Part shown: positions 4,005 to 32,600 of the stretch, piece after piece
How the letters are laid out: the number at the start of each line of letters is the position of its first letter
How positions within the stretch are numbered: the stretch's first letter is position 1
From: Halichondria panicea
Taxonomy: Eukaryota; Porifera; Demospongiae; Suberitida; Halichondriidae
Direction of reading: 5' to 3'
Assembly (NCBI RefSeq): GCF_963675165.1
Contig: NC_087393.1
Span: 3,415,502-3,479,501 of the forward strand
Length of the DNA: 64,000 nucleotides
The notes under the pieces: generated by a model
Told to the model about the DNA's origin: nothing
The model's database searches: none
Seen by the model: the letters and a program-made list of their open reading frames with translations, nothing else
Position numbers and translations under genes: made by a program

Positions 4005-6311
4005 TTACACAGCAACAGTATGGGTCAATGTGGAGAAAGTATCTGTTTTTGTCCTGAGTTGCAACTTTCTATCTGTTACCGATTGTTTCCACTTGTTTTT
4101 AATGAGTGACACAACTGGTGGGGCAAATAGAAGCAGTAAACTGCTCAATAAAATCCCGGACAAAATGAGCATGAGCAAAATGTAGTGGATGTGTTGGTCC
4201 CAATTGACGCTCTGTAGTGTAGCAATAAACACAAATGGGTATCCGAACCAAGTTATCAATATTTGACAGAATGCTAGGATGCTTATGCTCTTGACTGTTT
4301 TGAACTGACGGTTGATGTGCCGCAATGGTAGTGACAACCCCAAAGAGAGAAATAACAACACCCCAACGTACAGTATAGGTAGAAGTTCCCAAATTCTAGG
4401 AACACATATTGCTCTATTGGATTCAGTCAAATCATTTATGAATGTCATTTCTTTCCAAATATGCTCAGTGGAGGTGACAGATATTGATATTAATATGACA
4501 ACCACTGGAGAGACGAGTCCAAGTACACATAGGGCCAGTACAGAGTCTCGTAGAAGCAGTCCACCAGGGCGGGTGAAATGAATAAATATACGGTAGATTC
4601 GAAAAGTTTTCATTAACACTGTGGCTACAATGAGAGTGAAACCTGTTTGAATGAGCCATATATATACATTGCAGAGAGTATCTCCCACAAGTTGAGGATT
4701 ACTACTCACAAGACGAAAGTTTTTCCAATCGATTACTGTAAGCAGAACCATTCCAAACAGTAACAAATAGCAGCCTATGAAGATCAGGTTATTCAGCCTT
4801 GGGCTGTTGGCTTTTATTAAAGGGTCCTTCGACTGCCATAGATTCACAAGGTGTATAGAAATAGTCAAAACAAGCAGTAAACCAATGAATATAAACCCAA
4901 TTGCAGCTACTCCTGTTTGTATTCCAACATACTTCTTAGGAAAGTAGTCTTTAATAAATGATCCATTTATATAATCACTAGAGGTTCCTATGAGATTCAA
5001 TTTTCCGCTTACTACTTGTTTGAAAGTAATGACACTGTGAGTTTGACCGGTGTTATTATCGAACTTTATCATTCCTGAGGCTCCTTGAAATACGTCAAGT
5101 GTCAATATATTCTCTTTAATAGCTCTCGCAATTTCCTTACTCTCCACTGAGCCAGGTCTAAAGCGTGAAGTGAGATTGTGCTCGAGCCTTCCCTTGCGAA
5201 TTGCCTGATCCAAGCTAAGTCCAAGCGTCCATACCGCATCATAAAACACAGGAGCGTATGAAATACCATGAGGATACTGACCAAAGACATCTATTCCCTG
5301 CTCACCTGAGTAAGCATTCACCTCAGCTGTGTAGCTGTCATTGAATTCGTCATAGTTCTGTTTTGAGACAATTTGTGTTTTGCTGTCGTCAGCAACCAGC
5401 TGATATTGAAGAAAGACAGATTTCTCAAAGGCTCCCATCAACTCTTCATTGGTGCAAGAGCTCTGATCGTTCGGATTTATAAGAATGCTTCTCTCGATAA
5501 AAAACCATTGGGTCTGTTTGTATATTAATTGAGGCATACTTTTGTATGCAAAACACATAAACTTATCAGCAGTGTTGCGGCTTAGCAACACAATGAATAC
5601 TCTCAGGTTTGATCTGGTGATATCCTGGTTAGCATTGAAATTTGCTTCACCATCCGTAACACGAAATGTTGTGATATTATATAGAGTGTCGTCAAAGATA
5701 CCAGGAACGGACTTGTACAAGTCCACCCAAAAAGTGCTAGAAACATCCAAAATGATACCCATTGAATTCCACTGTTCTTGAACGGCTAGTTTCTTCATAG
5801 CAATTAGAAATGCATTCCCAGAGCTAAGTGTGGAAAATGTAAAGGGGAATCGTGTTCTGTTCTCTAGGGTAGGACTTGTTCCAATGGTTACTTGCACAAG
5901 AGGATTTCTTTGAGGCACACTGAGACCACCAAGATCGATCGCATTCACAGAGCAAGCTGGTCCAACTATGCCGAGAATGTTCTGTTCACCATAAATCACT
6001 GTCTTTGCATATGTATCTAGCAGTCTGCCTTCCCTCCCCACCAAATCATGACAACTGATGCTTTTTTCAATCAGCACAAGTTCATGTTCAGGTAGAATAT
6101 CTGATCTGTTGTTGATCTGGTTGGCAGCTAATCTTGCAGCTGGAACCAGAGCTGGTCCTCCATCCCAGCCAAACTGACTGCTATCTTCATCGTGAAATGG
6201 AGTCAGTATGAGCAAATTGAGCTTGGTCTTTGATCCACTTGCACTGGGTTCGAGTAGATTTAGCAGTTGCAATGTCACAACAAAGTTCCACACAAATAAC
6301 AACGGCCTCAT
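4005..6311 (-). CDS. Intronless GABA-B-like class C GPCR, full length
   Basis: One uninterrupted frame of 768 residues from ATG at 6311 (a TTG two codons upstream is less likely). Residues 1 to about 25 form a hydrophobic signal peptide. Residues about 30-440 match a Venus-flytrap (ANF-receptor type) ligand domain, with features such as GIVGPACSVNA, FPFTFSTLSSGN and GMIKFDNNTGQ, the last like the GABA-B motif G.V.F...G. Residues about 470-745 hold seven hydrophobic segments with KANSPRLNNLIFIGCYLLL (TM2), as in GABA-B receptors. The C-tail is short (about 25 residues) and shows no coiled coil, unlike the neighbouring receptor. It should act as a plasma-membrane metabotropic receptor with unknown ligand. 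The absence of introns next to a nine-intron relative suggests retroposition or secondary intron loss. Tail-to-tail with the gene ending at 3735, 269 bases apart. Confidence 0.9.
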   Translation of the reverse strand: MRPLLFVWNFVVTLQLLNLLEPSASGSKTKLNLLILTPFHDEDSSQFGWDGGPALVPAARLAANQINNRSDILPEHELVLIEKSISCHDLVGREGRLLDTYAKTVIYGEQNILGIVGPACSVNAIDLGGLSVPQRNPLVQVTIGTSPTLENRTRFPFTFSTLSSGNAFLIAMKKLAVQEQWNSMGIILDVSSTFWVDLYKSVPGIFDDTLYNITTFRVTDGEANFNANQDITRSNLRVFIVLLSRNTADKFMCFAYKSMPQLIYKQTQWFFIERSILINPNDQSSCTNEELMGAFEKSVFLQYQLVADDSKTQIVSKQNYDEFNDSYTAEVNAYSGEQGIDVFGQYPHGISYAPVFYDAVWTLGLSLDQAIRKGRLEHNLTSRFRPGSVESKEIARAIKENILTLDVFQGASGMIKFDNNTGQTHSVITFKQVVSGKLNLIGTSSDYINGSFIKDYFPKKYVGIQTGVAAIGFIFIGLLLVLTISIHLVNLWQSKDPLIKANSPRLNNLIFIGCYLLLFGMVLLTVIDWKNFRLVSSNPQLVGDTLCNVYIWLIQTGFTLIVATVLMKTFRIYRIFIHFTRPGGLLLRDSVLALCVLGLVSPVVVILISISVTSTEHIWKEMTFINDLTESNRAICVPRIWELLPILYVGVLLFLSLGLSLPLRHINRQFKTVKSISILAFCQILITWFGYPFVFIATLQSVNWDQHIHYILLMLILSGILLSSLLLLFAPPVVSLIKNKWKQSVTDRKLQLRTKTDTFSTLTHTVAV

Positions 6312-6684
6312 TCTCAAAGAAGTACTTATACTAGACTATAGATTTTGTTTTAGATCGAAGTCTAACACTTCGTACTAAAATTACGATAATGAATTAATGA
6401 GCTGACTGGATCGACATGATAATTATCATTATAATTAGCAAGTTATTTACGCAAAAACCCACATCCTGATATAATCTATTAATTTTTGTCCAGCTCAGCA
6501 CATCACACACAAGTTATTTCTGTGTAATGTGCTCCTGCACACACACAAGCAATGCACCTCTGGCCTCTGAACTTGCTAAATTGTGGATTAAAATTTAATC
6601 CACAATTAATTACAATGCTGACATTATGAATTATGAATTATAAAGGCAATACACGACCACAATGTCATAATAATACATAAAGCG

Positions 6685-11360: not shown

Positions 11361-14300
11361 ATGGCCAGTTGTGTTGAACTTATAAAACTGCCCGTGTACA
11401 GTATTGGAAACGAAGTGAACCCGATTAACTCTCATACTATAGAATTCATTGGTAATTGTACAGAGAGTGTTGCTGTGTTTGCGAACGTCCAAGTGAATAG
11501 TAGTCAAGTTGTCAAAGATTCTACTGACTTTTTAATGGCCAGCAGAAAAAACGGAGTGATTAAGCGGCACCATAACCGGGCCATTGATTTAGCTCTGAAA
11601 TATCGTAGAAGGCGTTCTACTATCGAAGACAAGCGAAAACTGAATGGTGAAGTAGTGCCTATACAAAAGGTGCAACAAAACATTTGTAGAGTCGAAACAA
11701 TACCAGGCACTAGTCTTAAAATATGCAGCTGTGGTACAGTTTCAGAAACTGCAAAATCGAAAAAGTGCCAAAACTGCCACAAGTTCTTTTACGATCATTG
11801 GGCGCAGCGTTGTCGAATACCTCCGTGCCCGAAGTGTCACTTCTGTCGTAAAGCAAAAAGTCGTGAGAAGCCTCCATATAAGTGTGACCGCTGTGGATTT
11901 GAAATCAATGCTGAACTGGTAGTATCAGAGCAGCCCTCCCAATTCAACGAACCTGATACTGAAGAGAATATCCATCCTGACAATCTCAGCTCCCCGAAGC
12001 CTGAGCTCTTACCCACTGTGCTCAATATTCTCAAGATTTGTGGCAATAAATCTTTTGAAGAAACTGAGGAAAAGAGTGACTCTCTTGACCCTGTTGAGGA
12101 TTGTGCTACATGTAGCTCATCATTGATTGAACCGAACACTGAATTAATTGAAGAAACAATTGAGGAATCCAATGATTTTACCATACCTTTTTCGTTACGT
12201 CTTAGTGAAGGGGAAGAAAACTTGTTGTGCGAAGACGCTGCTGAACCCTCAACACCACCCATGAATTCAACTGCTGGTAGTTTTTTTGAAGATGATTTTA
12301 TCACAACTCAATCATCAATGTCGATCTCACCTGTGACAGTGCCTACTTGCATCAGTCAAACACCTTCCAACCAAGCCGTGGCGCTGAATTTGCCCCCTTT
12401 GCCACTCTCACCTTCTTCGAGCTCTGGAATGGTCTCTCCTTGCTTTTCATCAGCCTCTACTGTCTTTTTGGATCATGGACAACTAGGCACTGATAAAACG
12501 TCTTCTAGTTATGATTCCAAACTCTCTTCAAATTCTAAAGCCTCATCTGATATCACGCAAATTGCAATAGCTGCTAATTCATCTAATGGTCCCTCTTTGC
12601 TTGTCCCGAGCTCTGTTACTACTGAAGTGAGTACTGCACAAGAAACTGTGCCACTACCAGTCACTGTCAAGAATTGGTCAAATACACAACATCTCGATTT
12701 GCTACTTTCACAGAATGAACAACTTATGGACTTTCAGAATGAAGGCACTCCATCTTTATGTAATGGAGACCTTCGGTCTGTACAAGGTATGGACACTCTG
12801 CATTTATTGGATGAAGGAAGGCCTATAACGAATGAATACCATCCTTGTGTATTGGATGGAGATGAATCATTTGCTCTGAGTAAAGATGAAATTCCTCTGC
12901 CAATTAAGGACTCTTTGCTGAATGAATGCTCTGTACTGAAAGCAAATCAAGACCCTGTAAAAGGTACAAATGAAGATGAAGAAATAACAAATGAGAGCAC
13001 TATACTGAATGAAGAACATCAAAACTCTATCGCATATAACGAGACTGCACCAAGTAAGAACCTTGTACCAATTGAAGATTCCGAAAGGAATCAAGACGCC
13101 TTACCAATCTTATCGAGCGAAGAACCGGTTAAAATATCGTTAAGTCAAAATCCTTGCGATGACTCTCCTTTGCCACCGTCCAGTGAAGACTGCTTGGAAG
13201 AACAAAAGAATGATCTTTCACTACCTTCACCAAGTGTAATTACTTCTGCCATAAGCTCTACGTACCCACCCACTCAGAATCTCTCCCCTTCCCCAATATC
13301 TAGTGAGGACTCGCAAAGTTTCACTTGTAAGGACGAAAAATTCTTGTTGCCCACTGTTGAAGTTGAGTCAACTGTCTCCACTTCGATGCCTCATATGTCC
13401 ACCGGGATTAAATGTACTCCTCCCAACCCAGTGCCAACGATTAAAAGTGTGTATGTGCCTTCACTTCACAAAATCAGGGAACTAGTAGGACTGACTTTGA
13501 AGCGAACACCCATAGAACAGTACCAACAAATACAGCGAAAGATCCTAGCTAATCAAATCCAAGCTCAGATTGAAATACAACGCAGCATTCTGAAAAGTCA
13601 AACTGGTTCAGATAATTCGGAACCCACTAGTATTTTGGGGAAAAACACGTCAACTTTGGAAGACGGAAAACCAGCTGCTAAGAGGCGTAAGAATGTTTTC
13701 TCTGACATTGTTGCTGATGTGATTCAAAGCATTAAGGAACTTAACAAATCTAAAGCGAACGAACCTAGCATTATTCAACCTGCACCGAGTTCGTTCTCAC
13801 CAAGTGTTAGCACAGCAATAACAACGCCAATCAATAGCAAAACTGTGGATTCCCTTACGCAAAGTTCGTCTTTTGCTAAGTTATCATTGTATTCCCCATT
13901 GATCCAAGGTCCTATAGCTGCTGAAGGTTCATCACGAGATGGGGTTCCGTCTGAAATCAAAGACAACATTCCTTTAAGACTTTCGAATTCATTCAGAAAG
14001 ATTGAAACAACTGGTAACGATAAAATTCGAGTATCACTCCTTAAAGATAATACATCGTCAGCGCAAATTGATGGTTTGTCATCGAACAATGATCAAGTTA
14101 TTTTACCTTCACCAAACTTTTGCGTTGTAAATGCTAAAATTTCGCGTAAATCTGAGCCTAGTACAATACCGCTAGCTGGTGACTTGAATACTAGAGAAGT
14201 TGAGAATGTTACTAGAGAAGTCGATCATGTTACTAGAGAAGTCGATCATGTTACTAGAGAAGTCGATCCTATTGCTGGTAATTACGTACCTTCATTGACT

Positions 14301-17300
14301 TCTATAAAAGAGGAACCGACTGATCATGTAACTCAAGACTTAAATGCTGAACAGGCTATGATTAATGACCCTCTAGTAGATGTACCCACGATAACTGCCA
14401 CTAATCCAATACTCCCTGAAAACAACTTCACGGCACATGTACCTCCGCTATTGAAACTACCACTAATCGATTCCAGCACTCTTAACACACATCCTGATGA
14501 TAGCTGTAATGATGCTATTCTTCAGAATACGATTCCTGCTCTGCCTGTTGTCCCATCAGAGCTTGCTCTGCCTCTCCAGGACGCTGTTACTGGCCAATCC
14601 TCTGCATGCATTCTTTCTCTACATAAGCAGCCATCCTCCTCAGCTAACATTCTGCCTGACGTACCAGGAAACCCCAGCCAAGTGAGGCTGCAAGTCAGCA
14701 ACAGCATTCTCAGCTCTCTTAAAAATGAAGGACTTAATTTATCCACTACTAGTAACTATCGGTCAATTCGACCCAGGCCTACTGCCTCCATTGGTGGGGT
14801 TCTAGTACAAAGTCTAGAGTCTAGAAGCCCGGATCAACCCCCCGTGTCTAAAGTAGGTGGTGTTTTTGTATCTGTTCTCAGCTCCTTTGCTCCACCTGTC
14901 AAAAGTCAAGACTCAACAATTGGTGATTAAGCAACTAATTAAGTATAAATTATTTCAACTGTTGTATTTTGCTGTAGGTGACATGAGCTCTAAGTCTCCC
15001 ACTCGTGCTCCAGCTGAGTCTAACCGTCAAAATAAGAAATCTAGTAAAACTGGGAACAAAGGTAAATATCCTATGAGTACGCACAGTTGCATTACACGTC
15101 GTCTGTACATGTACTTGTTAGTGTGTCTTTAGAAAGTCACATTGGTTACAGCATACTACATGTACGTAACATACTGTATCCTTTTGTTCCACTGAGCATG
15201 TCTTGGTGTGCTGTTTGGTTAGTATATTCACAGTGTCTAGTTTGGTGTCTTCTATTTTAATGTTTTATCCAGGTAGAGGTGGTAAGAAGAGTGGTGATGG
15301 TCGCCGTAAAAAAGAGGGCGGTGCTTCGCGTGGAGGTGGTGATGATTGTGAGGGTGGGGAGGGGGCAGGCGATGACAAGCAACCAAAGAGAAAGAGAAAG
15401 CAAACAAATTCCATATCAGGTTTGATAAAAACATGACTGTGTGTATAGGAAACAAGATTGTGGGGTTGAGATAATTTGCTTCTTGGGTAAAGGCGTTATG
15501 GTTGCTCAGTCAACTTTTTCATTTAGACAAGAAGAGAAAGCCGAGGATGAAACTATACTCTGTGAAGCTTAAAGGTCGGTTCTGTTTTCAAACACTGTAG
15601 TTTTAGAGTGATGTTCAAATAAATTTTACACTGTAAATGTAGGTGATTTTATAAGCGCTTGTACACTTCTAGACACCCCACTCCCCCTCACACACACATA
15701 CAGACGGGTTCCTCCACCATGTCACGTGGGGTGAGCAAAGGGTGGTATTCATGGTTCCTTTGCTGGACGGCCAAATAAAAGTGAGTATATAGAGGCTAAC
15801 AAACCTGCATTGTGCTGTATGGTATGCAAATGTGCATGTGTGTCAAACCCTTATGAATAAATTGTAATAGCTATGTATCTGTATTGAAATTTTGATGATT
15901 GTATTCACGAATCCTGATACAATACATGTACGTGTGTGTATGCAGTTTATGACGTATATACATGTACTTTTAGTTATTCTCTTGTTTCTGTTCAGTCGAC
16001 TGTTCTTGAGGAGGAGAGTCCTAACAGCTCCACCAAGGCGGCCGAGCCTCCTCCCAAGGTGATTAAGAGCACCCCCCAGCCTGGCGCTGAACGCAAAACT
16101 CGTAGGAAAGCCAAACTCGAACCAATGATCGAACCAGAAATTGAGGAGGGTGAGAGCCTACTTGCACTGTATCTTGTATACTTTTTTGTACAATGTTAGC
16201 AAGCTATTATATAGGTTAGTTTTGGAGGATGCACAAGTTATTCCTAGGTGCACCCATGCTTTTTATTTGCTATGTACATGTATACAGCTGTACATGTACG
16301 TGTATACAAGACAGTGTTAAAACCTCTATTCTGTGATAATAATAATTATATAACGATCTTACACTAAGTATCTGGGCAGCAATGTATTGTAATCAACCGC
16401 AGAACTGGACCCATTGTTGGAGTCTCCATCAACGTCTTCTGCTCACATAGTTACACCCTGCTTGTCAATCTACGAGCTACGACACAAGCTTTTCAAAGAC
16501 CTCCCTGCCAACACCATCTACGCCTACACCTATCGACACCAAATTAAGACTGTCAAGCCCCCTATGCACTGGGTGAGTGTGTGTGCGTGTATGTCGAAGG
16601 ATTCGTTACTCAGTTTTCTCTTACTGGTGTACTGCTACAGTAGCGGTAAAAAAAAAGTACTCGCTCCGTTTACGTAGTACGTCCGTAGTACGCTAGTACG
16701 TTGCAAAATAAGCGCTAAAAGTACGCTCAAGATACGCTACGTACCGTTGCGTTTTTTTTCTAATCAACCGTTGTTAAATTTTACCTTCGGCCACACCCAT
16801 GCAGCTCTGCACGCAGCTAGCTCGCTAGAACTTTTGCAGCAGTTACATGTAGCTGTTAGATTTATAGCTAGCTAGCTAGCACTTTCTAACCTTGTAGAAC
16901 AGAGATAGGACTCTATAGAGACTGCAGACATCCTTTTTGATGAGAAGGTTAAAGAACTTGTGAATGGTGCGTTTTATATCTTTGTTGTAATAGATCTAGA
17001 GCTAGACATACAGCTAGACATAGCCATAGCATAGCTAAGTAACTAGTATAGCTACAATACTCGAGATGACTAGGATTGTCTCTTTGTTCGTTTTCTAAAA
17101 CTTTTCTGCAAAATGTACTTGCAACGTGCAACAGTAATTATCAACGGTGCGGTAAATTCAACGCTTTTGATACGTTGTCAAACGGAACGTACTACGGACG
17201 TACTACGTAAACGGAACGGGTACTTTTTTTGACCGCTACTGTACATGTACACTGTTTTGCGAATAGCAAAATTAGGTGGGCATGCCTTATGCTTTACGCC

Positions 17301-20300
17301 ATTGAAGACCAGGCAAACATTATGGGCTATTCAAAAATGCTGTAAGAAAAGTGTGTTTTTGTCTTTGATGCCAACTGTTATACTTATAAGTACAATGTAG
17401 ACTCCTTGTGCCTATGTACATGTACAGTGTATAGTTATTAAAAGTTCCTCCCACCTCACAGCACCAGGTGCTCAGACGAATGGGTGGTGTGGCGACAAAC
17501 ACTCATACTTGCAGAATACTCGAGTACAAGTATGTACAACGCATAGTGGAACACTACGGCACAGACTCCCCTATCCCAGACTGTCTGGAGGACCTCTGTA
17601 GGAACAAGTTTCCAAAGGGTAGACGAGGTGAGGAGTAACTTGATTTTTCAAGTACGTGTGCTTTTTCAAGTGCATGTATGTACATGTACCCTTGCCATGG
17701 GTAACTGCGCTACATTTAATGTGAGAGATTACAGCCTGTGAATGTCTAAACAAGTGTTGTACATGTATGTCCTACATGTAGCTAGGGCACATTATAATAT
17801 GATCTTCTTGTCTACATGCAGTAATTGATCTCAGCGATGTTGACCCCAATGATCTCTTGGAAGGAGAGCACTTAGAAGCAATTCCTTTGTGTACAACTGG
17901 TTCTCCAAAGAAGAAGAAATCCCCTAAAGATTCTCCCCTGGACAACGTTGATGACTCTGTCGATGACTCAAAGTCATGTGAACAGTCACCTGATCGGTCA
18001 CATGACGAAGCACATAAATCACAAGATTATCATGTATTTCAAGACCAACAAGATTTCCCTCAAACCAAACTGGGCACCCCTCCTCGATTCAGGTGTCAGT
18101 CAGTATGTACAGAAAGCCTACGAAAGCCATCATTTTCTTGCCCTTATTATGCCTCGGTGCGCATGCGCAAGCGAGGTATACGGTAGTGTGTTTGTGTGTC
18201 TGTGTGTGTAGACTGCTACAGCTGCTCAAGGATGAATCAAGTGCAAGTAAGAGTTTCTATAGGCTTCTAGTCATGTTTACTTGGATTTTAATTCGTGGAT
18301 TTGCAAAATAATGCTTCGTTCTCGAGTTATGCCTAGTTTTGCTTACTTGGAATGCCATTGCAGCCTTTTCAGAAGAGCACGTAGCCAAACTTGTTTACCG
18401 AGTGTTACTACTCTACTTAGTAGTTAGCTCTGCACTAGAACGCTAGCTATTGGTAGCTGCAAGAGTGAGGAAGAGAGCTGCAAGGCTCTGCTGATGGCAG
18501 CCATTAATTTTAGACTTTAACTTTTGGCATTGATCGTTTTTAACAACAATCATGGTCGATTATTACCCACTCTTTGAGTTTGCATGCAGCAAAATTATTA
18601 TTGCAAAAATGTTCATCAGCTATTAGTAGCTTTATGTTATGTAGCTTTGGCATCTCCACCGAGGCATCAGCACCTGCGGTGCTTTCATTATTATACTGAA
18701 GCTAGTTCGTGTACAAACTGCTTAGAGAGTTGACAGTACTTTTTTTAACTATACAGTTTATATATATAGCTATAGCTACTACATGTAAATGTATTGCATC
18801 CTCCACGCTGCAGCATTGACGGAAAAGGCCAGAAGCAGAAGTACTGTCCACAGTGTGGAACACAGCTTCTCAAGAAGTCCAAAAAGTGTTACAGTTGTGG
18901 GAAGAGATTTGGTCTTTACTCATTTGGTCGGAGGCTCTGCCCTTCTTGTGGACATTGCAACCTCGCCAAAATGACCGATTGTCATGAGTGTGGTCACAAC
19001 TTGGCCGACGCCCCCACTGCTATTCCTGATGGTCAGTACTACAAGTTACATACATACATGTATGTATCTGATCGTACAATGCATGTGTATATTTGGCGCT
19101 AAATATTAACGTTCGGTTGCAGTGCATCATTGCAGATGTTACAATGTACGTAGCTTGCATATACGACTAGATTTACTCTTATGAGTAAGATTTTTGTTGC
19201 GACCTAATCCCGTCAACACTCTGCAGTGAGTGAGACTATTTTACCCCCGGTTCGATCACGCAAAAGACTAAGAGATGGTTACTATGGCTACGAGGGTGGA
19301 TCAGCACCAAAGATTAAAAAAGAGCATGTGAGTTCATTAACAGCTAATACTTAGTCAAACGGTATACGGATGGAGTGTTTCATGTTCTCATCAGTATTAC
19401 AGTTGTAACAATTATGTGCACTTGAAATAGGCTTTCGGAAGGTTTACTGTGACGGTTTTAGGAAACGTTGCTGGCTATTCAGGTTTATGCCTAATGTAAT
19501 TTTACTGAGGATTGCCTTACCTGCAGCAATTCAGTGTGTCCTCCTCTGCCCCTTCTTCCCGTCTCCCCTCCACTGCCGATATCGAGTCCCTCGATGACCT
19601 CCCAGGAGAAATGAGCGGAGCAAACAATCCTGTCAACAAATCAGATGACCCCACTACTCCTACCAGAAATGCCACATCCAAGTCGTTCAAGTTCTCTGGG
19701 TATAAATATGGGCGTATTCCGTGGGGAGAAGCAGACGTGACTTGTTTGGTAGATGAGTCGGGGACACCTAGGTTTTGTCTCCCCGAGCTCTGCGGCAAGG
19801 TGTGAAAGGATATGTGTATAGCAATATTGTGAATGTGTGTGTGTACAGGCCGGCAACTGTGGTTTCATGTGCTCATTGTGTATAAGATTCAAACTACATG
19901 CACGTATACATTATTAGCTCATCTACCCACCTCTCATGCACAGGTGTTACGAAATCACTCCAAGTCTGATGTGTTTGAGATAGTAAAAGACCTCAACCTC
20001 CCTCTGACTCAGGGTGACTCAACACTCCTCAAGAGACTACAGGCTCTTGGACTGCACTCAAACAGGTGTCTATAGACTAGTCTATTCAGTACTGTAGAGC
20101 AAGGTGGTTGTCAGAAAACGTGTCGTAGCATATTTAATGTTGTACTTGCTTGACAAGCTTGGTATAGCTCTGTTCACAAAACTGCTCTACGGTAGTAACT
20201 TTTTTGTGGGATGCTTTCAGTTCTTGAATTTGAGAGAGCTACGTGCATATACGTATATTCTCTGCAGGTCTCCCGTATGTCGTCTTATTGGCCCAGATGA

Positions 20301-22401
20301 AGTATGGACGTTATTGGATGCCCTACAGGAGCAGGTACCTGCTGAGGTCCACCAACACTTGGAGACAATCACCCTCTCATCCACACCACTCCTGGTATGT
20401 TGTATAGCTGTGAATTTGTTGGTCACCAGTGTTGTCTCCCCTAGTCCCCTGGAGCTCCGACCCACAGCCCTGCTCTTTTTCCGGCCAAGACATCAATACC
20501 TGAAGATGACGAGCATGGTTAGCCAAGTGTGTGTGCGTGTGCGGACTGGGAACTACTAATAATACTTGATGTACTCAATGCTGTACGTCAGATATCTTTT
20601 CCTGCTCACAGGTTTTCAGTCCACATTGCATGAAGTTGATTGCAGTGATGGGCAGACAATGGCTCTCCTGCGATCGTGGCGGGGAGAGCAGTACGGCTCA
20701 CTAACAGAGCTCTGGCGCAAGTACTTCCCTGAGGTGAATAGAAGCCACCTTACTACTGTTCTCAGGAGGCTCAAGGTGGATACCATCATGCCCACTGGAC
20801 AACAAGCCACTCTACTCAGGAACGCCAACGTAATCTCCCTCAGGTGTGGCAAAGTGTGAATATAATTATATGAAGTGTGTTTGATGTGATGGTGTGGATT
20901 TTTAATAGACTGCTAAGTAAAAAGGTAGCATTATTTGTAGTGTAAGGGTCAAAGAGGGTATACAAGGAGGTGTGAGTGTGTGTGCGAAACATAGTTTGTA
21001 TTGTGTGGAGACAGAGTGCGCGTATATATACATGGAAATTTTTAGAGAGTGCGAGGTACTAAATACAGCAATTTACAACCATGTCTTTTTAATATTGTCT
21101 CTTTCTCTCCAGAGGTGCAGCCGGCAGACTGATAGAGATAGAGGACATGCAGTTGTTGTTGGACGACCTCAGCATACCTCTTCAGATTGGCTCCTCCCCC
21201 AGCAGCAAGAAAGACAAGGTACATGTACATACACGTGCATTTATGTGTACTGGAATGGAAGAAGCTCTCTATGAAAGCAGATCCGCAAATTGTTCGTCTG
21301 TAAGCACAGCATACGGTAGCAGGTACAATGTATTCTTCGAGAGGCAAAAATAATGTTCACGGATTTTGCAAATTTCATGACATTTTCAAACACTCTAATA
21401 CCTAAAAGCAAACGTAATACTGTACCTAGGATCTACACCCCGATAATGTTATACACAAATGCACAAAAATGGCCGATTTGTGAAACATTAGACACCAGTA
21501 TGACGTTGACAATCATGTGCTTTTTATGGTGCAAACAAAATAATTATACCATTTCATGTTTTAATGTTTTATCGAATCACCAATCCTCCTCTTTCGCTGT
21601 AGCCCCTCACTGCTGTTGCACCTCCCACCCAGCCAACGGTCCCTCCCCTGCTAATACGTAGACAGAAGAACAACGCATCGTACGGAGTAGGTCGCACTAG
21701 TCTTGCTGCCACTGCAGCTGCTCAGGGGAAGGCCCTAGCAACCAAAGAAGGTAATTAACCCTTATAATATTTAGTGAAAGTACAATGTTAGTGGCGTTTG
21801 TAATGAAACACCGGAATGAAAAAAACAACCACCTAGTCCAATTAGAAACTGTAAAACATAAAATGCATTAGCATATTGACAAGGTTGAGAAAATACTGCT
21901 CTTTACAGTCTCTAATACTATCTACAGATCTCCAGTATGCTGAGTGCATGCGAAACTTGCTCCAAGTGGTTGAGCTGAGTGACGTCAAGCTATTGGTGGA
22001 GAAAGCACATCAGCGGGCAGCTGCCTCCACCAGCACTATCGACACTGACAACAGAGGTGAGTTAATTCACATTGTAGTTCCAATTCGCTTTCACAGTACA
22101 GTATAGGTCAAGATTTATATCCAAATGAGTTTAGACAATACTTGGTTTTTTTTTATCACTGAATTATTATAATTACGCAGCTGCTTCTTTGGAGCTGGAT
22201 GATGTTCAGCAGCGTATCTCCTCTCACCGAGAGCTCTGTTCTGTTATCACCGACGAGATTGGCTTTCTCAACGTAAGTAACCATGGAATCATGTCCGAGG
22301 TGGTTCGATTATCTCACACTGAGAAGAATGTGCTGCAAGACCTCGAGAGACTGTGTAGTTCCCATCACATGGATTTGAAATTTGATGATTCTCACAATTA
22401 A
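11361..22401 (+). CDS. Large nuclear-looking protein: two zinc clusters, three DACH/SKI-like units
   Basis: Twenty exons: 11361-14922, 14978-15061, 15273-15419, 15527-15574, 15704-15780, 15996-16149, 16403-16572, 17462-17627, 17822-18092, 18814-19031, 19227-19327, 19527-19799, 19944-20065, 20268-20394, 20445-20517, 20612-20843, 21113-21218, 21603-21750, 21928-22056 and 22181-22401. The sum is 6429 nt (2142 residues) with no internal stop. I do not recognise a named orthologue. Residues about 122-180 form a Cys-rich cluster (CSCG, SKKCQNCHKFF, PCPKCHFC, CDRCGFEI). Residues 190-1187 are Ser/Thr/Pro-rich and disordered-looking, with scattered acidic stretches. Residues 1188-1280 are Lys/Arg-rich, likely nuclear localisation. 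Residues about 1564-1625 form a second cluster (CPQCG, SKKCYSCGKRF, CPSCG, CHECGHNL). Three related units end in VLRRMGG..TCRILEYKY, RLQALGL..VCRLIGPDE and LLRNANV..GRLIEIED, resembling the end of the Dachshund/SKI fold. A coiled-coil-prone tail ends the protein. Probable chromatin or transcription role (inferred). Weak points: the exon 1 donor (TTG|GTGATT; without splicing the frame stops at 14930) and the last exon, which has a possible internal GTAAGT donor. Confidence 0.8.
14190..14270 (+). repeat. In-frame 21-bp coding repeat (VTREVDH units)
   Basis: Four copies of a 21-bp unit (ACTAGAGAAGTCGATCATGT plus one T) lie in tandem in exon 1, the first divergent and the last truncated. They encode repeated VTREVDH heptads. 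The near-identity of the inner copies points to recent slippage, so the locus is probably length-variable. Confidence 0.9.
16638..17241. mobile_element. MITE-like element with TA target duplication
   Basis: Inverted ends CAGTAGCGGT...ACCGCTACTG are flanked on both sides by TA. The similarity continues inward for about 55 bases (poly-A/T, then CCGTTTACGTAGTACGTCCG against its complement at 17191-17216). The element is about 604 bp and lies in the intron between exons 7 and 8 of the zinc-cluster gene. TA duplication and short ends fit a non-autonomous Tc1/mariner-type element; no transposase frame is inside. Confidence 0.8.
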
Positions 22402-22812
22402 TTTCTAGATGGTTCCCTTATTTGTTATAGTTCAATTATTGTTATACTTATTGTACAATGTCATGTAGATACATGTATCATTTCCTGTATTATTATTATA
22501 ATTACGCTTATTCTGATTGCTGTTTGCACAGTGCATGGGGGCGGGGCTGCTCAGGTGTATGACGGTAAACAGCTTCAGGTTTGTGTAGATAATACTGATA
22601 CAGTACATTAATTTATATCTACAGGCTTCAGCAAAACACACACATGCTGGTAAGTTCCTCTGTAGTTATAATTATGCTAGACTACATAGATCTATTTTAA
22701 TAGGCTGAACAGTCAACAGCTAGAGCAATAATTACTTATAATTATAATAGTATATTGCTATAGCTATTATTAATATAATTGTAAAGAATTTCTTGCTTTC
22801 TAGGTGCATGGT
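22402..22812. other. Spacer between the zinc-cluster gene and the sulfatase
   Basis: AT-rich, with a GGGGGCGGGGC box at about 22539-22549 that could be a promoter element for the sulfatase. TTTCTAG directly before 22804 resembles an acceptor, so a 5' untranslated exon may precede the coding start. No coding stretch is seen. Confidence 0.4.
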
Positions 22813-25800
22813 ATGATGGCCCATCTCCTGCTCTTCGTGCTTCTAGTATGCAGTGTGTCCGCCACTCCACAGCAACAAACAGTAGGAGCAGCAGAGAAGC
22901 CCAACATTGTGTTTATACTGGCTGATGACATGGGACTCTGGGCGGCTGCTACCTATGGAAACTCTGAGATAATCACTCCAAACATTGACAAGTTAGCAGA
23001 GGAAGGTATCAAGTTCAACAATGCTTTCTGCAACACCCCAGTGTGCTCAGCCAGCAGAACTTCTTATTTTACAGGTATATTGGTGTACGGTGCTGGACCG
23101 CAAAATTTGAGCTTGCCATGAGCTTCTTCATGTCCAATTTAATTACTAGTCACTATAGTACTGGGTACAAAATTAACAAAACATGATGACTGTGATGAGA
23201 GGATTTTTGCTATAAAACTAAGCATTTAAGTTTTCTGAAAGTCCGTATCATCGCCGTACGTAAAGTCTTTAGATTTGAGTAATCCAGTATAATTTTTTGG
23301 ACAGTTCTATAGTTGTTGACAGCCGTCTTCTGTGTAGCTAATTATATGCCATGTGACTGCCATTGATTGCATGCATGCATGTATCTATACCAAGTTTACT
23401 ATAGAAGGAGGTAGCTCTGCTCAGAAAAAGTAGGACACGTGTCATAATTATCGAAGTATATGTGCATGCATGGAGAAAGTAAAAGATGTAGCTAATTATG
23501 TGCCATGTGACTGCCATTGATTGCATGCATACATGTATCTATACCAAGTTTACTATAGAAGGAGGTAGCTCTGCTCAGAAAAAGTAGGACACGTGTCATA
23601 ATTATTGAAGTATATGTGCATGCATGGAGAAAGTAAAAGAATATACGGAAGCATGAAACCAAAAGTTGCTCGCATGTATCTATACTAAGTTTACTGCAGA
23701 AGGAGAATACTTAGGTAGCTCTGCTCAGAAAAAGTAGGACATGTGTCATAATTATCGAAGTATATGTGCATGCATGGAGAAAGTAAAGAATATACGGCGC
23801 ATGAAACCAAAAGTTGCTCTCCTATATATAGCTAATCTAAAAGACTGCAAGAGATCATAGCACTCCACAGTAGTTGGTAGCAAGGGGAAAGCAAGGCCAA
23901 CACATGTTTCTATAACCCTCAGTTTGCCGCGGTTATGACGCATGCTCACTCCTATATATTTAAACGTACCGTTACTACCGTACCGTTGAAAACTAACTGA
24001 GTGTAGCCTGTTCGTTGACAAAAAGAACGCCGGTCAAATTCTTACAGTACTCAGTACTGATGATTAACCGCACGCCCACAACCGATCATGAATGTGATAT
24101 GGACAGGTTCATGTGACCCATGCATAATCATATTCATGACCAATAATTGTGCTCGTCGTGTCCTATGGTTAATTTATCGATTCAAGAAATTCCAGGAACT
24201 TGACCAGGCGTTCTTTTTGTCAGCCTGGTCTGGTCTCGAGGCTACTTTGAGTTAGTTGTGTCAATGCATAATTATGATAGATCGAAATGTCCCATTCTCA
24301 AAAAAATCATGGGCTATATATAAGTATTGTGCCGTACAGCACTTTATGATAGATACTCAACCCTACAGTATATATATAGAGAGGTCTTTACAATAACCGA
24401 AAGTAAAAATGTTTTAGTCAATCTGCGAAAAACTGAAATTTTAGTGCCTCAGAAATAAAGGTTTAATATCTACTACTGTATTAACTAGAATATTTTGGGG
24501 GTGGAAATTATCTTTGCGAATGAGCCAAATTGATTTTTGTTTGTGTATTCAGTACTTTATTTTTAGGTTTATTTATCAACCCTCGCAAACTTCGCATATG
24601 TTTAATGCTCGCAAAATATTCTAGTAATACGGTATTATAGAGCCTCTAATGGGGTAGTTACAAGCTGTAGCAGCTGATTATCATGTACTGTATGCTGCAT
24701 CAAACCTAAATACTATAGTTATGATATACAATAGAGTTTGGCAACAGAACGTTCTTGCACGGTTGCGTAAAGGGACCCAATTGTGTTTACTGGTTGATCA
24801 ACCGGATGTCTGATTATAACAACTGGGTGTCTGATTGATTAACCGGTTTCCGGTTTTTCGATCGAGAAGTTGAGCATGAAAAAATTAATAGTGTGCAATT
24901 TTGAGCACAATGTGATGGCCTATTGAGACTACTCTGCAGCTGGGCCCACTATTATTCTTTTAACTTGCAGGTCGTCTACCCAGTCAGACTGGAGTACATG
25001 ACTGGATTAGCCGAGGGAATGGCTGTGAGGACGAAGCCATTGACTACACTGGTAAAGAGGAATCTTACACGGATATTCTCAGCTCCCATGGCTACTACTG
25101 TGCAATGAGCGGCAAATACCATCTAGGGGACCAACAATACCCCCAGCACTCATTCAAGCACTGGTTCGTACACCAGAAAGGGGGCTCGACTTACATTAAT
25201 CCCCCAATGGTAAACAACTCCAAGTGTGAGAATATTAAAGGCTATGTGACCGATATAATAACCGACGATGCTATTAGCTTTATCAACGGGTACACTAAGA
25301 GCGGAATGAAGGATCCATTCTATATCTCTGTGCATTACACGTCTCCCCATTCTCCATATGTTGGGGCAGACGGCAAAGCCGATTCTATGCACCCCAAGCA
25401 ATATGTAGATATGTACAACAATTCCAAGTTCATCTCCTGCCCTCAAGAGCCCATGTCCCCCTATGCTAGACATTTTTCTAAGGGGCTAACGGAACACTGC
25501 CTTGGAAACCGAGAGTGTTTAAAAGGCTACTATGCTGCTGTAACTGCCATGGATATGAACATTGGTAGAATACTAGATACTCTCCACTCTAACGGTCTAG
25601 ATCAGAGCACTCTTGTTGTGTTTGCTAGTGATCACGGCTTTAATGCAGGTCACCATGGACTTTGGGGTAAGGGGAATGCAGCGTACCCCTTAAACATGTT
25701 TGATACTTCGATAAGAATTCCAATGATTTGGCGACACCTTGGAGTTATCAAACCAGCAGTTGAAAACTCTGTGGTTCAAGTTCTGGACGTAGCACCTACT

Positions 25801-26247
25801 CTGATCGAATATGCTGTCAATACAAGCTTTCCATCTATTCGTAATATACCAGGAGAGAGCTTTTCCGGACTACTAACAGACCCCAGTTCAAGGAACTCAA
25901 AAATGTTTAGAGTAATTTTTGGAGAGTATGGTCAGACACGTTATGCTCGTTCAAATGCTACAGATGGCATTAAGTATGTCACGAGGCTAACAGGACATGC
26001 AGAGCTGTACGACCTTGAGAATGACAAGACGGAGAAGCTCAACCTACTGAGTCCGTTTTCAGGGATTAAAGAGAAAGTAAACAGCATGGCAACGGTGTAT
26101 GATAGAGCCCTGAGGGAATGGTTCTCCTTCTATGAGGACCCGTACGTTAGTGGGTGGGCCAAACCAGTCACTGGAACAGGTCAGAGGAGGGCACTCTACT
26201 ACAATACGAGCGGGTGGCCCAACACACCTGAATTCGACCAGCTATAA
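22813..26247 (+). CDS. Secreted formylglycine-dependent sulfatase
   Basis: Two exons, 22813-23074 and 24971-26247, encode 512 residues. Residues 1 to about 20 are a signal peptide (AHLLLFVLLVCSVSA). KPNIVFILADDMG carries the metal-binding Asp pair (38-39). CSASR at 78-82 is the formylglycine site, where Cys is converted by the sulfatase-modifying factor; most eukaryotic enzymes have CxPxR, so this is the CxAxR variant. GKYHLG, HSPYVG and FASDHGFNAGHHGLWGKG (D308-H309) supply further metal and substrate residues. LDVAPTLIEYA and GESFSGLL match the C-terminal part of the family. The layout resembles bacterial-type and iduronate-2-sulfatase-like enzymes more than arylsulfatases A/B, so it probably acts on a sulfated polysaccharide in the secretory route or outside the cell; the substrate is not deducible. 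The first ATG pair is at 22813 and 22816. The 1.9-kb intron is full of repeats. Convergent with the HECT gene, 231 bases apart. Confidence 0.9.
23334..23797. repeat. Tandem repeat, about 154-bp unit, three copies
   Basis: Copy 1 starts at 23334 (GTAGCTAATTATATGCCATG) and copy 2 at 23488, nearly identical over the full unit. Copy 3 (about 23673-23797) is truncated and more diverged. All lie in the sulfatase intron. Confidence 0.85.
24016..24222. mobile_element. Short inverted-repeat element (MITE-like)
   Basis: Ends TGACAAAAAGAACGCC (24016) and GGCGTTCTTTTTGTCA (ending 24222) are inverted, about 22 bases with one change. The element is 207 bp in the sulfatase intron. No coding capacity. Confidence 0.7.
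24474..24634. mobile_element. Short inverted-repeat element (MITE-like)
   Basis: TACTGTATTAACTAGAATAT at the left is inverted at the right as ATATTCTAGTAATACGGTA, with small differences. The element is about 161 bp. The ends resemble the TACCGTAT ends of the elements at 52995 and 44665. Confidence 0.55.
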
Positions 26248-27395: not shown

Positions 27396-29564
27396 TAAGA
27401 TGCCGTGACAATCATAATTTTGTGAAGTGAGCTAGTATAGTGGATGCTCTCGATAATTTTTGTCCATTCCCAAGAGGCTAATAACAATACTCACTATGTA
27501 GATGCCAGTTGCAGAGTTTGTCAACAAACTCCTCCCGATTCTCCATAGTGACATTTTTGTCCTCCCCTCCCTCCTCCAGTGCCTCTGTATGCAGGGCCCC
27601 AAAATGGCTCCTCTGAGCGGTAAAAGTTACTGCCAGTTCTTGAAGAACCTCCTCACTTTCACTGTTCAGAATTGTCAAGAGACTCCTGGAAGAGAGACAA
27701 TGTACATGCCTAGTACATGTATTATATACTGTATGCTTTTACTCTGTCATGCAATTTACAGCTCCCAGTGTACACGATACGTTCACAACTTTCTTGCTAC
27801 CAGTGTGCTTCATAGTTTAATACAGAATTGCTAATGGGGTAAGAGGGGCTAAAACTAATTTGAAAGTGGTTTGTTAAAACCACGTTATGTAATGCAAAAC
27901 TTTTCGACGACCAACTATAAACGTTACGCCATTTTTTTCTTCGAGGTCAATTACTGGAAGTAATTGATGATTCAAAATTTTAGCAGCCATAATTTTGGAG
28001 TATAAATCTGCGAAAATTGCAAAAATTAGGTGGCTCAAAATTTGTTACAAATTTGTTACTTTTCAAGTATAAATATTGCTCGCCATTTCCCCAACAACAA
28101 TCCAAAGGGATTAATGTGCACTTAGTATTGTGAAAATGTTAGTGGTTTTCTCTACTGTGCATATCAGGTTGGATTAGTGAGTCTCACGTGTGGAGTGTAG
28201 GGTCCTCCAGTTTTAAGTCGTCAAGGGAACACTTCTGCTTGAGGAGGGACTTGTAGACAGAGGGTGTAAACCGCACTGGGATCTGGTGACCTGCAGGGTT
28301 TGAACAGAGCTCACATAATTCACTCACAGAGCGTAGGTAACTCCTCACCATCGCAAATAGCCCTTCCTAGTATCTTGCCAAAGAACTGGAAGAAAGTGAG
28401 ATGGTGGGGGTCGATGGATGACAGTTGACAGGGCTTGTAAAAGCCATTGATATTCTGGAAGAGAGCATATTGCGGGTCCACCAGCTGCTGAGAGAGGAGT
28501 TGGAAGAACTCTCTATGTAGAAGTGTGTGTGTTGGGGCTGACTGTAAAGCATGCATGCATGCAATCGGATTTAGGATGTGGCTACTCAACTAAGATAGCT
28601 GGCAAAAGAGATCGCATGTGATAATTATACAAGTATCAGTTCCCACACCACCAGTCTAACCACCTAAAAATAAACATGTTCTTTGTAATATAATGTATGC
28701 TCTGTACGTACGATAACGTAAATCACCTTGCAACGCCTCCAGTGTCTATTCCAGGCTCCGCCCCAAACCGCACTCTCAAATGGTTTTGGAAATAGTCTGG
28801 GTGAACAACAAACACACTCATGCTGCTCTCTAGTAGGTTGTCTCTGTGTACGGTAAAGGTGGGGGTCTTGGTACTACCGTACAGCCGAGTAAGATAGAGC
28901 TGCAGCTTGCAAACTCGGCTGCTTAGACTTTCTTGGACTACTTTGAGTACAGTGTACTCTATTGGACAGAAGGGAAGCTGCTCATTACAGAAGGAAATTT
29001 TAAATTGAAGCGAGCCTTTTTCATTGGCAAAGACATCGAAGCAAAACACATTTTCTGGTTGAGATTCTCGTTGGGGTAGAGGACTACATTCAGCGTAGAA
29101 ACTCTCCATCATTACTTCTCCTTTTATGCGTAGTTGCCATCCTTTGAAGGGGCAGGGGTTGAAATATTGATCATACATTGCAATCATACATGGGACACGC
29201 TCTGATACTGAAAGTTCGTATGTATTACTCTGAAGAAGTTGAAAGTTGTCGGGATAAGGGTTCCCACTATTTACCTTGACAGAACTAAACACCTTGTTAT
29301 TAATGCACAAGTTATACAGTCCTTGTATGGTGACTCTTGCTTTTATCATGTAAGTGCCGTCATTATTGTCTTGTACATGACACGCAATGTTTGTTGGATT
29401 TTCAACCAAATGTTGGTGGCTCAGAGGATATTGCTGGTCAGGGTGGGAGGTATTTGCAACAGGTCTGATTTCAGCACTCGTAATGGCACCACCTGAGTTG
29501 TGAGTATTTCCGTAGTCGTCTCGAGCCGTGATTTTGAGTGATATATCATCACCTGCTCGGAAGG

Positions 29565-29611
<47 letters not shown>

Positions 29612-32600
29612 ATTCATGCATGAAGCAACACTCAACAAATACCTGCACTGTACATTACCTGCACTGTACACATTACCAGTACGTAATTATGCAGTACAAA
29701 CATTTGGGGACTCATAAACATCGAGAGGGAGGCAGGTCAGATAGAACGTGTTTTATTACAGCAATAATAATTATGTTAGCAGGTGCATGGCTAAGCCACA
29801 TTTGAGGGGATTTACAATGACATATACTGTAGTAAATGTACTATATACACTTCATAACAGCTAATCTCACGACTTACAGCATATGTTACCAAGCACTTCC
29901 TTGTCATTATTAGTCACTGTGCTTGTTGCTGTACACAATGGACCAGGAACAATATAACAGGTGGTGGGGTCAGCGGACACATGATCTATCCATTGAGTTG
30001 TCAGGACAGTGTGGCATAATGCACAAGCAACGTACACTTTGAGCACACAAGCGTTTCTCATTTTTAAAACGACCACGGACCTCCCATTGGAAAGCCTAAC
30101 GCACGACATCCTGAGAGAATGTCTTATCTTCTGTTCGATTGTCTTACCCATCTTAGAGTCAAGACAGGCCAAGACCATGACATTTTTGTCCTCTTTAAGT
30201 AGCCATTGCGAGAGACCACCATGTTTAAGAGCCATGCTAATGTAGTGCATTTGAGACTCATCATTGGATGACGTCTGGTGACCAGTTTTTGTGTGTTGGC
30301 GTCGTAGTTTTTTGACACAACCAGTAGCTGCTTCAACTTCCATGTTTCTTTTGCTTACCTCCAGGAGCGGCTGTACAGCCTTAAGACACATGGGCACAAT
30401 AGAGGGTTTGTTGGGAACCTTGATAGATGGAAACACATTCCTCTGACAACAATGGCTTGAGTGGGAAGCAACAAAAACTAGTGGTTGTCCTGCAATTGTC
30501 TGACGATACCCAGGCATGGGATAAGAGCAGCTGTATGCTTTGAACGGGGAACCTTCAATTGGATTATTGTTCAATCTGATTGAAATATCATGGATACCTT
30601 GGCTTCGTGGTGTCCACTGAATTTTAAAGATTCCTTCAGGCTTCAAATTAATAAGAAGATCCTTCGAAGCTGTTTTAAAGTGGGGATCTGTGGACGAGCT
30701 AGCAGTTATTAGCTTAGAGTTACTGTCTTTTATCGTCATGTTCAAGATACATTGGATGGTGGGGGAGGAGGTGAGAGGTCTACCATTGTAGCTAACAAGT
30801 TGCACTCTGATTGTATTGCACATGCCTTCACTTGGAAACTGGAACCCAGGACTCTTCGAAATATCAATATGACATCTGAATGGAGCTGGTACGTTGGGTG
30901 GTGGAAATTCGATAGTGTTTTGTTGAGTTTTTGTTTTTGAAGCAGCTGATATTACAGATTGAAATACAACAATCATATTGTCACTCAGAGCCCTTGTTTG
31001 CAGGTCTGTAGCAGAGAGTTTGAGAATTGAGTATCCTCCTTTAGTAGTAAAACCGGTGGCTTCTCTTTCAGTTAAAATACCTTTGAGCCCACCGTTGAAT
31101 ATAGCTCTGGCTAGTCTGGGCTTCAAGGTTAGCACCTGCATTAACTTTGAAAACGAGTTGACGAAGGTGGTCATTTTGACGAAGTTCTTGATTTGTGGAA
31201 GAGAGATTTTACTGAGGTCTTGAAGCGTATGTACTGTTAAAGTATCTTCGCTGTCTTGTACTCCAAGTGATACAAACCCTTCATCCAGTCTTCCCATCTT
31301 CAAAGAATGAGTCAGATTAGGTAAAATTTTATTAGATACAAATTCTTTGACAAGACATACACACGCCTCTCTTTCTGTATCAAGCAAACACTCCACCAGT
31401 CCTTCAAATAACAACTCATAGAAAGAGTTTGGGTTCACAGGATCATCTTCTTCATACTTGTCGATAACAGAGATACTAATCTTCAAGGTCCTGTCTTGTC
31501 TGACAACTGACACACAAGATAAGTTGTATCTGTCGGAAGAAACGAGGTGCACTTCTAGTCTGTTCAAAAACGGGGACGTTCCACTGAAACATTGAAGTTT
31601 TTTATATTGCTTTCCAGGGTGTAAGCTCGCATACAGTACATGGGGACTTTGCACTAAACTCAAAACGTTGACGCAGTCGTCCAAAGCTTGAGTGATAGCA
31701 GAGCCATGGTCAGCAATTGTGAAGTCATAATCACAAGAGACAGTAACTTTTAAACTGTTCGAAATAACCTTTTTGAGTTGCCTTTTGAAAAATTGACACA
31801 AGTCTGTCACGTCCTTTGGTGATCCACTATATATACTGACAGCAGAACTATCAAAGGAAGACTGAATATCACTATTGTCAATTTTGTCCATAGAGGGGAA
31901 CAAAATAGCCCCATCGCTAGGCTTGTAAGAGAGTGTAAGCGTACCCTGATCTCCATAGACCTTGAATGAAGGAACGGCTGGCCACACTTGAGCGGTCACT
32001 ATTAGATTAGAAATTTGCTCAAGGTCTGAGAGGAGCGACAATTGCTCATATTCTCGGTTACTGCCAGTATGACCGCATATCTGACCTAGAACTGTAGGAG
32101 AGAAGACTACAGCCTCAACCAACACAGGTGTGTAGCGGTGCTTGTCCTGACAATCAGGCAGAGGAGTGGACAGAAAACACTCGGAGAAAGAATCCCAGTC
32201 CACAGTCAATAACACTTCTCTTGATCGGGTCCCATCTTTTGCTGAAAGTTGAAGAAGCCACGGATTGGATGGAGCGTAGCTAGTGTTACCAAGTTGTTTG
32301 ACAATGAGTAGGCTTTCGGACGGTGTCCAGTTGTGAGCAAGCCATGATGCAGCCAATGATAGATTCCCTTCACATTCACACATAGACTTGTAGAACTTTT
32401 CCAAAAGATTATAATAACTGACGTGTGAAAAAATGAGCTTCGATAGCTCAGGGACACACTTGGCAACCGGATTAATTTCAACGTCTATGGATTCGTATGT
32501 TAGACCAGTCTCAAGACTAAGATGGACAGCTGTGTTGTAGTTGCCCGAGGCGATTGCTAGTAAAAGTCCTTCCTCTAGTGCACCCCTCACAGAAAGAGCT

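What the first reader, a model, noticed from the sequence alone, without database searches (positions are those of the whole stretch)
11361..22401. Predicted 2142-residue protein with three DACH/SKI-like units
Three segments, about residues 1281-1450, 1735-1845 and 1866-1960, appear to repeat one fold. Two begin with a WGE strand (VTWGEQRVVFMV; IPWGEADVTCLV), and all three end in a shared pattern: VLRRMGG..TCRILEYKY, RLQALGL..VCRLIGPDE, LLRNANV..GRLIEIED. That end resembles ILRGLGAI..CKLISRKDF, the close of the Dachshund/SKI-SNO domain as I know it. SKI/SNO/DACH proteins carry one such domain; three in one chain, with two zinc clusters, would be a new architecture. The domain assignment is from eye alignment.
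Basis: partly seen in the sequence, partly recalled or inferred. Interest (0 to 1): 0.78.

Follow-up and report, generated by a model that had tools for sequence, protein, structure and literature searches.

The report
Animal protein with three Dachshund domains
A large predicted animal protein carries three copies of a chromatin-associated domain that SKI and SNO proteins are described as carrying once, two copies looking DNA-facing and one protein-facing, although no transcript or structure confirms it yet.

Summary
The domain reading also holds by profile: Pfam Ski_Sno_DHD (PF02437) matches the spliced C-terminal half at 46.2 bits, E 4e-12, with three stretches. Unit 2 alone passes the curated cut-off; units 1 and 3 alone do not (E 0.24 intact; E 0.0098). 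But a profile of units 1 and 3 only ranks DACH1 first of 177,635 PDB sequences (E 0.016). Units 2 and 3 share a phase-2 intron in the same aligned arginine codon, pointing to duplication inside the gene. By charge, units 1 and 3 resemble DACH1 (DNA-binding) and unit 2 resembles SKI/SNON (protein-binding). The two zinc clusters look related.

It is not a canonical SKI: no SMAD4-binding domain was found in it, and the genome has a separate locus with one. Most likely it is a chromatin-bound regulatory scaffold. Function is inferred; no usable fold prediction, transcript or animal-protein comparison was available. New variant of a known kind; interest 0.5.

The parts
11361..22401 (+). whole gene model: 20 exons, 2142-aa protein
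   Evidence: 19 of 19 introns GT-AG, no internal stop; no RNA data
11361..14922 (+). exon 1: zinc cluster 1 plus about 1000 residues without a Pfam match
   Evidence: (0 Pfam families at E 1)
11724..11894 (+). zinc cluster 1 (residues 122-178, Cys-rich)
   Evidence: aligns with cluster 2 (pair BLASTP E 2e-4; 37% identity)
14923..14977 (+). intron 1, 55 nt, joins the exon-1 ORF to the DHD half; unspliced, the protein would end at TAA 14928-14930
   Evidence: scored with a matrix that leaves it out: donor beats 673 of 755 GT, acceptor 713 of 731 AG in the gene; no AATAAA/ATTAAA in 14900-15300
15704..15780 (+). exon 5: first strand of unit 1 (HHVTWGEQRVVFMV)
16444..16572 (+). unit 1 core from residue 1372, first part (exon 7)
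17462..17560 (+). unit 1 core, second part (exon 8; HQVLRRMGG...TCRILEYKY)
18814..19031 (+). exon 10: zinc cluster 2 (Cys 1571-1619, 18845-18991), double zinc ribbon
   Evidence: (stretch 18824-19033): DZR 27.8 bits (cut-off 27.3), Zn_ribbon_3 30.6 (27), Zn_Ribbon_1 28.9 (25); all three below cut-off in the longer query
19722..19799 (+). unit 2, first part (exon 12; WGEADVTCLV...CLPELCGK)
19944..20065 (+). unit 2, second part (exon 13)
20066..20267 (+). intron 13, phase 2, splits the Arg codon before SPVCRLI
   Evidence: same aligned residue as intron 16 in the alignments
20268..20325 (+). unit 2, last part (exon 14; SPVCRLIGPDEVWTLLDAL)
20656..20843 (+). unit 3, main part (exon 16)
20844..21112 (+). 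intron 16, phase 2, splits the Arg codon before GAAGRLI
21113..21170 (+). unit 3, last part (exon 17; GAAGRLIEIEDMQLLLDDL)
21603..22401 (+). exons 18-20: C-terminal tail without a known domain
   Evidence: protein 1: 0 Pfam families at E 0.1

Best explanation
This is a single regulatory protein, presumably nuclear, with three Dachshund-homology domains (DHDs) and two related Cys-rich zinc modules.

SHOWN by sequence: the open 20-exon frame; three DHD matches; similarity of the two zinc modules; an intron position shared by units 2 and 3.

INFERRED: the units arose by duplication inside the gene. Units 1 and 3 keep a DACH1-like basic face (helix 2, strand 4, helix 3-strand 5 loop) and contact DNA or nucleosomes. 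Unit 2, SKI-like in sequence and charge and keeping CLP(E), docks a protein partner in the region of the groove described in SNON. The zinc ribbons and long linkers hold further contacts. The protein would work as a chromatin-bound co-regulator scaffold, several DHDs in one chain giving the multivalency that DNTTIP1 gets by dimerising in MiDAC. Whether it represses or activates is not known; repression is the family precedent.
For: Pfam PF02437: 46.2 bits, E 4.1e-12, three stretches. Single units among 24,736 families: u2 29.4 bits, E 7e-7; u3 16.0 bits, E 0.0098; u1 intact 11.6 bits, E 0.24, with its loop shortened 12.3 bits, E 0.14; PF02437 is the only family listed for u1 and for u3. Unit 2 finds SKI (E 2.1e-4) and SKIL (E 0.0023) as its only two PDB hits up to E 10. 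The u1+u3 profile finds DACH1 first. Shuffle tests. About 55 residues of all three units align without gaps to SKI/SKIL. Shared signature [CS][LI]xELxxK (CLPELCGK, SLTELWRK, SIYELRHK; E, L and K are among the 7 invariant columns). Introns 13 and 16 are both phase 2 in the same aligned Arg. Net charge of helix 2 + strand 4 + helix 3-strand 5 loop: DACH1 +3, u1 +3, u3 +4 against SKI -1, SKIL -1, u2 -1. Literature: that face is positive and proposed to bind DNA in DACH1, and more neutral in SKI/SNON, which act through protein contacts (PMC2944819, parts 1 and 2 of 4 read); the DNTTIP1 DHD-like domain binds DNA and nucleosomes (PMC4344507, passages); [quoted passage not shown]
Against: Units 1 and 3 alone are well below Pfam's cut-off of 24.5 bits, and phmmer with either alone finds no DHD in the PDB. 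u1 and u2 are not directly similar (638/2000); on the HMM test u1 and u3 only equal the best of 1000 shuffles. Units 1 and 3 lack CLPQ. Of 16 SNON groove residues listed in PMC2944819 only 3 (L167, P168, C218) are identical in unit 2, so its partner need not be SKI's, or the groove may not be kept. Charge counts from a few sequences, on segment borders that I set, are weak evidence. No fold could be predicted (mean pLDDT 55.6 and 57.4). No transcript or orthologue was available.
Confidence: 0.55

Rival explanations
1. Only unit 2 is a true DHD; units 1 and 3 are unrelated stretches that fit the profile by chance.
For: Each alone is under the curated cut-off and finds no DHD in the PDB by single-sequence search. 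In the exon-level scan an ORF at a SMAD locus scored 9.2 bits by chance.
Against: The u1+u3 profile, unit 2 left out, puts DACH1 first of 177,635. u1-DACH1, u3-DACH1 and u3-SKIL 0/2000 shuffles. Gapless alignment, and an intron shared by units 2 and 3.
Confidence: 0.1
2. Two genes: exon 1 (1189 aa, ending at TAA 14928-14930) and a separate downstream gene with the three DHDs.
For: The exon-1 ORF ends just inside the 55-nt intron 1; an ATG lies at 14983; the donor of intron 1 (TTG|GTGATT) is among the weaker ones (4.9 bits; the other 18 span 3.1-9.7) and 82 of 755 GT in the gene score as high or higher.
Against: Its acceptor beats 713 of 731 AG; another intron of the gene is 50 nt; no AATAAA or ATTAAA in 14900-15300 (but none in 22380-22800 after the last stop either, so this is weak); the frame continues; the zinc clusters of the two halves align.
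Confidence: 0.12
3. The units belong to another DHD-like class (INI1/SMARCB1, PHF10, DNTTIP1 or BCOR) rather than to SKI/SNO/DACH.
For: Those folds are alike with little sequence similarity (PMC4344507 and PMC4509781, passages).
Against: Among proteins known to me as DHD-type, the sequence searches list only SKI, SKIL and DACH1, and Pfam lists only PF02437 for u1 and u3, and for u2 one further weak hit to a family of unknown function, DUF7750, E 0.13.
Confidence: 0.06
4. It is a SKI-type SMAD co-repressor whose extra DHDs widen SMAD binding.
For: Unit 2 is SKI-like; the genome has SMADs (9 MH2 matches at E 0.01 or less, on 3 contigs).
Against: No c-SKI_SMAD_bind match is listed for either half; that domain is found on another contig, C9.
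Confidence: 0.12

Closest known systems
SKI / SNON (SKIL)
   Same: Unit 2 DHD: profile and phmmer matches, CLP motif, near-neutral helix-2 face
   Different: Three DHDs, no SMAD4-binding (SAND-like) domain found, two zinc modules, 3 of 16 groove residues identical in unit 2
DACH1 (DACHbox-N)
   Same: Units 1 and 3: top profile hit, basic helix-2 face
   Different: No CLPQ in units 1 and 3; three units; zinc modules
DNTTIP1 in MiDAC (DHD-like, nucleosome-binding, dimeric)
   Same: Works-like analogy only: multivalent chromatin contact through DHD folds
   Different: No sequence similarity found; there multivalency comes from dimerisation, here it would come from repeats in one chain
Double zinc ribbon (DZR, PF12773)
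   Same: Cluster 2 passes the cut-off when its exon is scanned alone (27.8 against 27.3 bits)
   Different: Within the 952-aa query the match is below cut-off (22.2 bits); no close solved relative (11 hits, best E 0.0076, ZNF265)

Membership tests
SKI/SNO/DAC DHD (PF02437) | profile score over the curated cut-off (24.5 bits) | tested here: met
   C-terminal half 46.2 bits, unit 2 alone 29.4 bits
SKI/SNO/DAC DHD (PF02437) | units 1 and 3 each over the cut-off alone | tested here: not met
   11.6 bits (unit 1 intact; 12.3 with shortened loop) and 16.0 bits; supported indirectly
SKI/SNO/DAC DHD (PF02437) | CLPQ motif (called characteristic of the family in PMC4344507, passage read) | tested here: inconclusive
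   unit 2 CLPE; unit 3 SLTE and unit 1 SIYE in the aligned columns
SKI/SNO/DAC DHD (PF02437) | winged-helix fold with an extra helix in the wing | not testable with these tools
SKI/SNO co-repressors | SMAD4-binding SAND-like domain (PF08782) | tested here: not met
   absent from the Pfam lists of both halves (E up to 1 for exon 1; up to 10 for the rest)
SKI/SNO co-repressors | C-terminal coiled-coil | not tested
   no coiled-coil prediction was run; no Pfam domain in the tail
SKI/SNO/DACH proteins | a single DHD per chain (described for SKI and SNON in PMC2944819; recalled for DACH) | tested here: not met
   three by profile
Double zinc ribbon (PF12773) | profile cut-off 27.3 bits | tested here: inconclusive
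   cluster 2 stretch alone 27.8 bits, 22.2 in the longer query; cluster 1 has no Pfam hit but aligns with cluster 2

The most novel reading that the evidence does not exclude
A separate, probably old, animal family of triple-DHD chromatin proteins in which one gene holds both functional types of DHD side by side: DNA- or nucleosome-facing (units 1 and 3) and partner-docking (unit 2). It would be a natural record of how the DACH-type and SKI-type domains diverged.
Probability: 0.3. Interest if true: 0.72.

Novelty: new variant of a known kind. Interest (0 to 1): 0.5.

Why it matters
SKI and SNO proteins (and DACH, as I recall) are described with one DHD, and why some DHDs bind DNA while others bind only proteins is argued from separate proteins. 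A chain with three, of both apparent types, would let the two modes be tested in one molecule and would add a chromatin regulator to an animal toolkit that here also includes SMADs. It also suggests that more multi-DHD proteins may be missed because introns split the weak units: the exon-by-exon PF02437 search of this genome did not report this gene at all.

Tried and rejected
First gene model: wrong acceptor for exon 5, a spurious exon at 18212-18246 and a failed look-up of one exon start; stop codons showed the errors. The spurious exon lies near a stretch that looks repeat-derived (similar reading at L002, compared by eye). Structures of exon 16 alone (mean pLDDT 55.6) and of the zinc pair (57.4) were too poor, so no fold search was run. 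Relatives in viral contigs and GTDB prokaryote contigs: 2 and 53 pattern matches, none confirmed. No paralogue of the C-terminal half elsewhere in the genome at E 1 (all 19 matches lie in this gene; the search scores only the best candidates). The exon-level scan with the DHD HMM does not separate true exons from noise. A DHD upstream of the C9 SMAD4-binding locus was not evident in 8 kb (L014), which proves nothing because of introns. Paper searches gave nothing on multi-DHD proteins or sponge SKI: 15 of 15 listed; 1; 6; 0; 12 of 33 listed; 0; 15 of 55 listed; I saw listings only, apart from the papers named in the report.

Because of this I raised the two-gene rival from 0.10 to 0.12. Unit 1 (second protein), 26 and 28 was typed with part of its loop left out; one search repeats the Pfam scan with the intact unit (11.6 bits instead of 12.3). 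The first protein has the loop intact.
Full report
Setting. The window is G000:C17:3415502-3479501 of a 131,455,214-base genome in 39 contigs. The genome carries SMAD MH2 domains (9 matches at E 0.01 or less, on 3 contigs) and one c-SKI SMAD4-binding domain match, so I take it for an animal. A sponge is my guess from the general style of the genome (recalled, not tested).

Gene model. Introns run from 50 to 889 nt. The weakest link is intron 1 (55 nt), which joins exon 1 (1187 whole codons) to the DHD half. Scored with a matrix of the other 18 introns, its donor beats 673 of 755 GT and its acceptor 713 of 731 AG in the gene: ordinary for this gene, not proof. Retained, it would end the protein at TAA 14928-14930. 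No RNA was available.

Domain identity. Pfam PF02437 matches the spliced C-terminal 952 residues at 46.2 bits (E 4.1e-12; cut-off 24.5) with three stretches, the best at residues 1733-1817. Tested alone, unit 2 has 29.4 bits (E 7e-7), unit 3 16.0 (E 0.0098) and unit 1 11.6 (E 0.24, intact; 12.3 with its loop shortened). Unit 2 finds SKI and SKIL as its only PDB matches up to E 10. Units 1 and 3 alone find no DHD by phmmer, but the profile of just these two puts DACH1 (1L8R) first among 177,635 PDB sequences, E 0.016; the next nine hits (E 0.2 to 1.5) are unrelated. The three-unit profile finds SKIL (0.001), SKI (0.0093) and DACH1 (0.3) as the top three of four hits. An HMM from SKI, SKIL and partial DACH1 stretches finds three hits in the protein, all at the units. 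Units 1 and 3 there (6.2 and 6.0 bits) only equal the single best of 1000 shuffles (6.2; next 3.4), so each is about 1 in 1000 on this test.

Relation of the units. Pairwise, u1-u3 and u2-u3 are each matched by 1 of 2000 shuffles; u1-u2 is not significant (638 of 2000). Units 1 and 3 resemble DACH1, unit 2 resembles SKI. All three share [CS][LI]xELxxK at the place of the CLPQ helix (E, L, K invariant); SKI, SKIL and the genome's other DHD (L001, C14) have neither that E nor that K. Introns 13 and 16 are both phase 2 and fall in the same aligned arginine of units 2 and 3, 19 residues before the end of each unit. Unit 1 has no intron there, and the L001 frame is open across it. I read this as duplication within the gene, at least for units 2 and 3.

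Zinc clusters. Cluster 2 lies in one exon (18814-19031) and passes the cut-offs of three zinc-ribbon families when scanned alone; in the longer query these are below cut-off. Cluster 1 in exon 1 has no Pfam match but aligns with cluster 2 at 37% identity, pair E 2e-4, which for Cys-rich stretches is moderate evidence. No close solved relative appeared.

Mechanism. In DACH1 the face made by helix 2, strand 4 and the helix 3-strand 5 loop is positive and was suggested to bind DNA; in SKI and SNON it is more neutral, and SNON has a conserved groove fit for protein binding on the same face (PMC2944819, parts 1 and 2 of 4 read). Counting K+R minus D+E over these segments, on borders that I set, gives SKI -1, SKIL -1, DACH1 +3, unit 1 +3, unit 2 -1, unit 3 +4, L001 +2. 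This suggests two DNA- or nucleosome-facing units and one docking unit. Against a simple SKI-like docking role, only 3 of 16 SNON groove residues are identical in unit 2. [quoted passage not shown] three units in one chain could give like multivalency. The domain family is described as exclusive to metazoan chromatin-associated proteins (PMC4509781, passages). Function here is inference throughout.

What it is not. No SMAD4-binding domain of the SKI/SNO kind was found in it; the genome encodes one elsewhere. No second copy of its C-terminal half was found.

Novelty. PMC2944819 (parts 1-2) and PMC5992185 (passages) describe one DHD each for SKI and SNON; for DACH this is recalled. Searches of an open-access library listed no multi-DHD protein (only part of the hits were listed; words with a slash cannot be searched, and 'SKI SNO DAC' with spaces gave 0). 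No animal protein database was at hand, so similar proteins may already be listed unnamed. I file it as a new variant of a known kind.

Noticed in passing
window 12195-12305 and L010 1465-1743: A short piece of exon 1 (residues 279-315, with AEPSTPPMNSTAGSFFEDDF) has a 74% identical copy on contig C10 inside an otherwise different ORF: a duplicated fragment.
   Followed up: partly
window about 18120-18260 and L002 990-1340 (minus strand): A stretch in intron 9 resembles one on contig C6 (shared readings ALIMPRCACASEVYGSV and CYSCSRMNQVQVRVS, by eye): probably a dispersed repeat.
   Followed up: no
window 14189-14268: In-frame 21-bp tandem repeat, 3.8 copies, coding TREVDHV units.
   Followed up: no
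window 4005-6335 (minus): Class C GPCR in one long ORF: ANF_receptor plus 7tm_3.
   Followed up: no
window 22804-26247: Sulfatase sequence directly downstream: Pfam match in 24964-26244, N-terminal-looking ORF from 22804 (by eye).
   Followed up: no
window 28723-35821 (minus): Very long ORFs with ankyrin and filamin repeats and an end resembling a HECT ligase (by eye, recalled, no Pfam match): possible large AREL1-like E3.
   Followed up: no
window 46019-46672: ORF made of repeated PLTPSPHKAKARTHTNSY-like units: a tandem array, probably not a gene.
   Followed up: no
L001 1465-2571 (G000:C14): A DHD in a single exon, below the PF02437 cut-off (17.1-20.7 bits by query length) and weaker than unit 2; likely a SKI/DACH-type gene of this genome.
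   Followed up: partly
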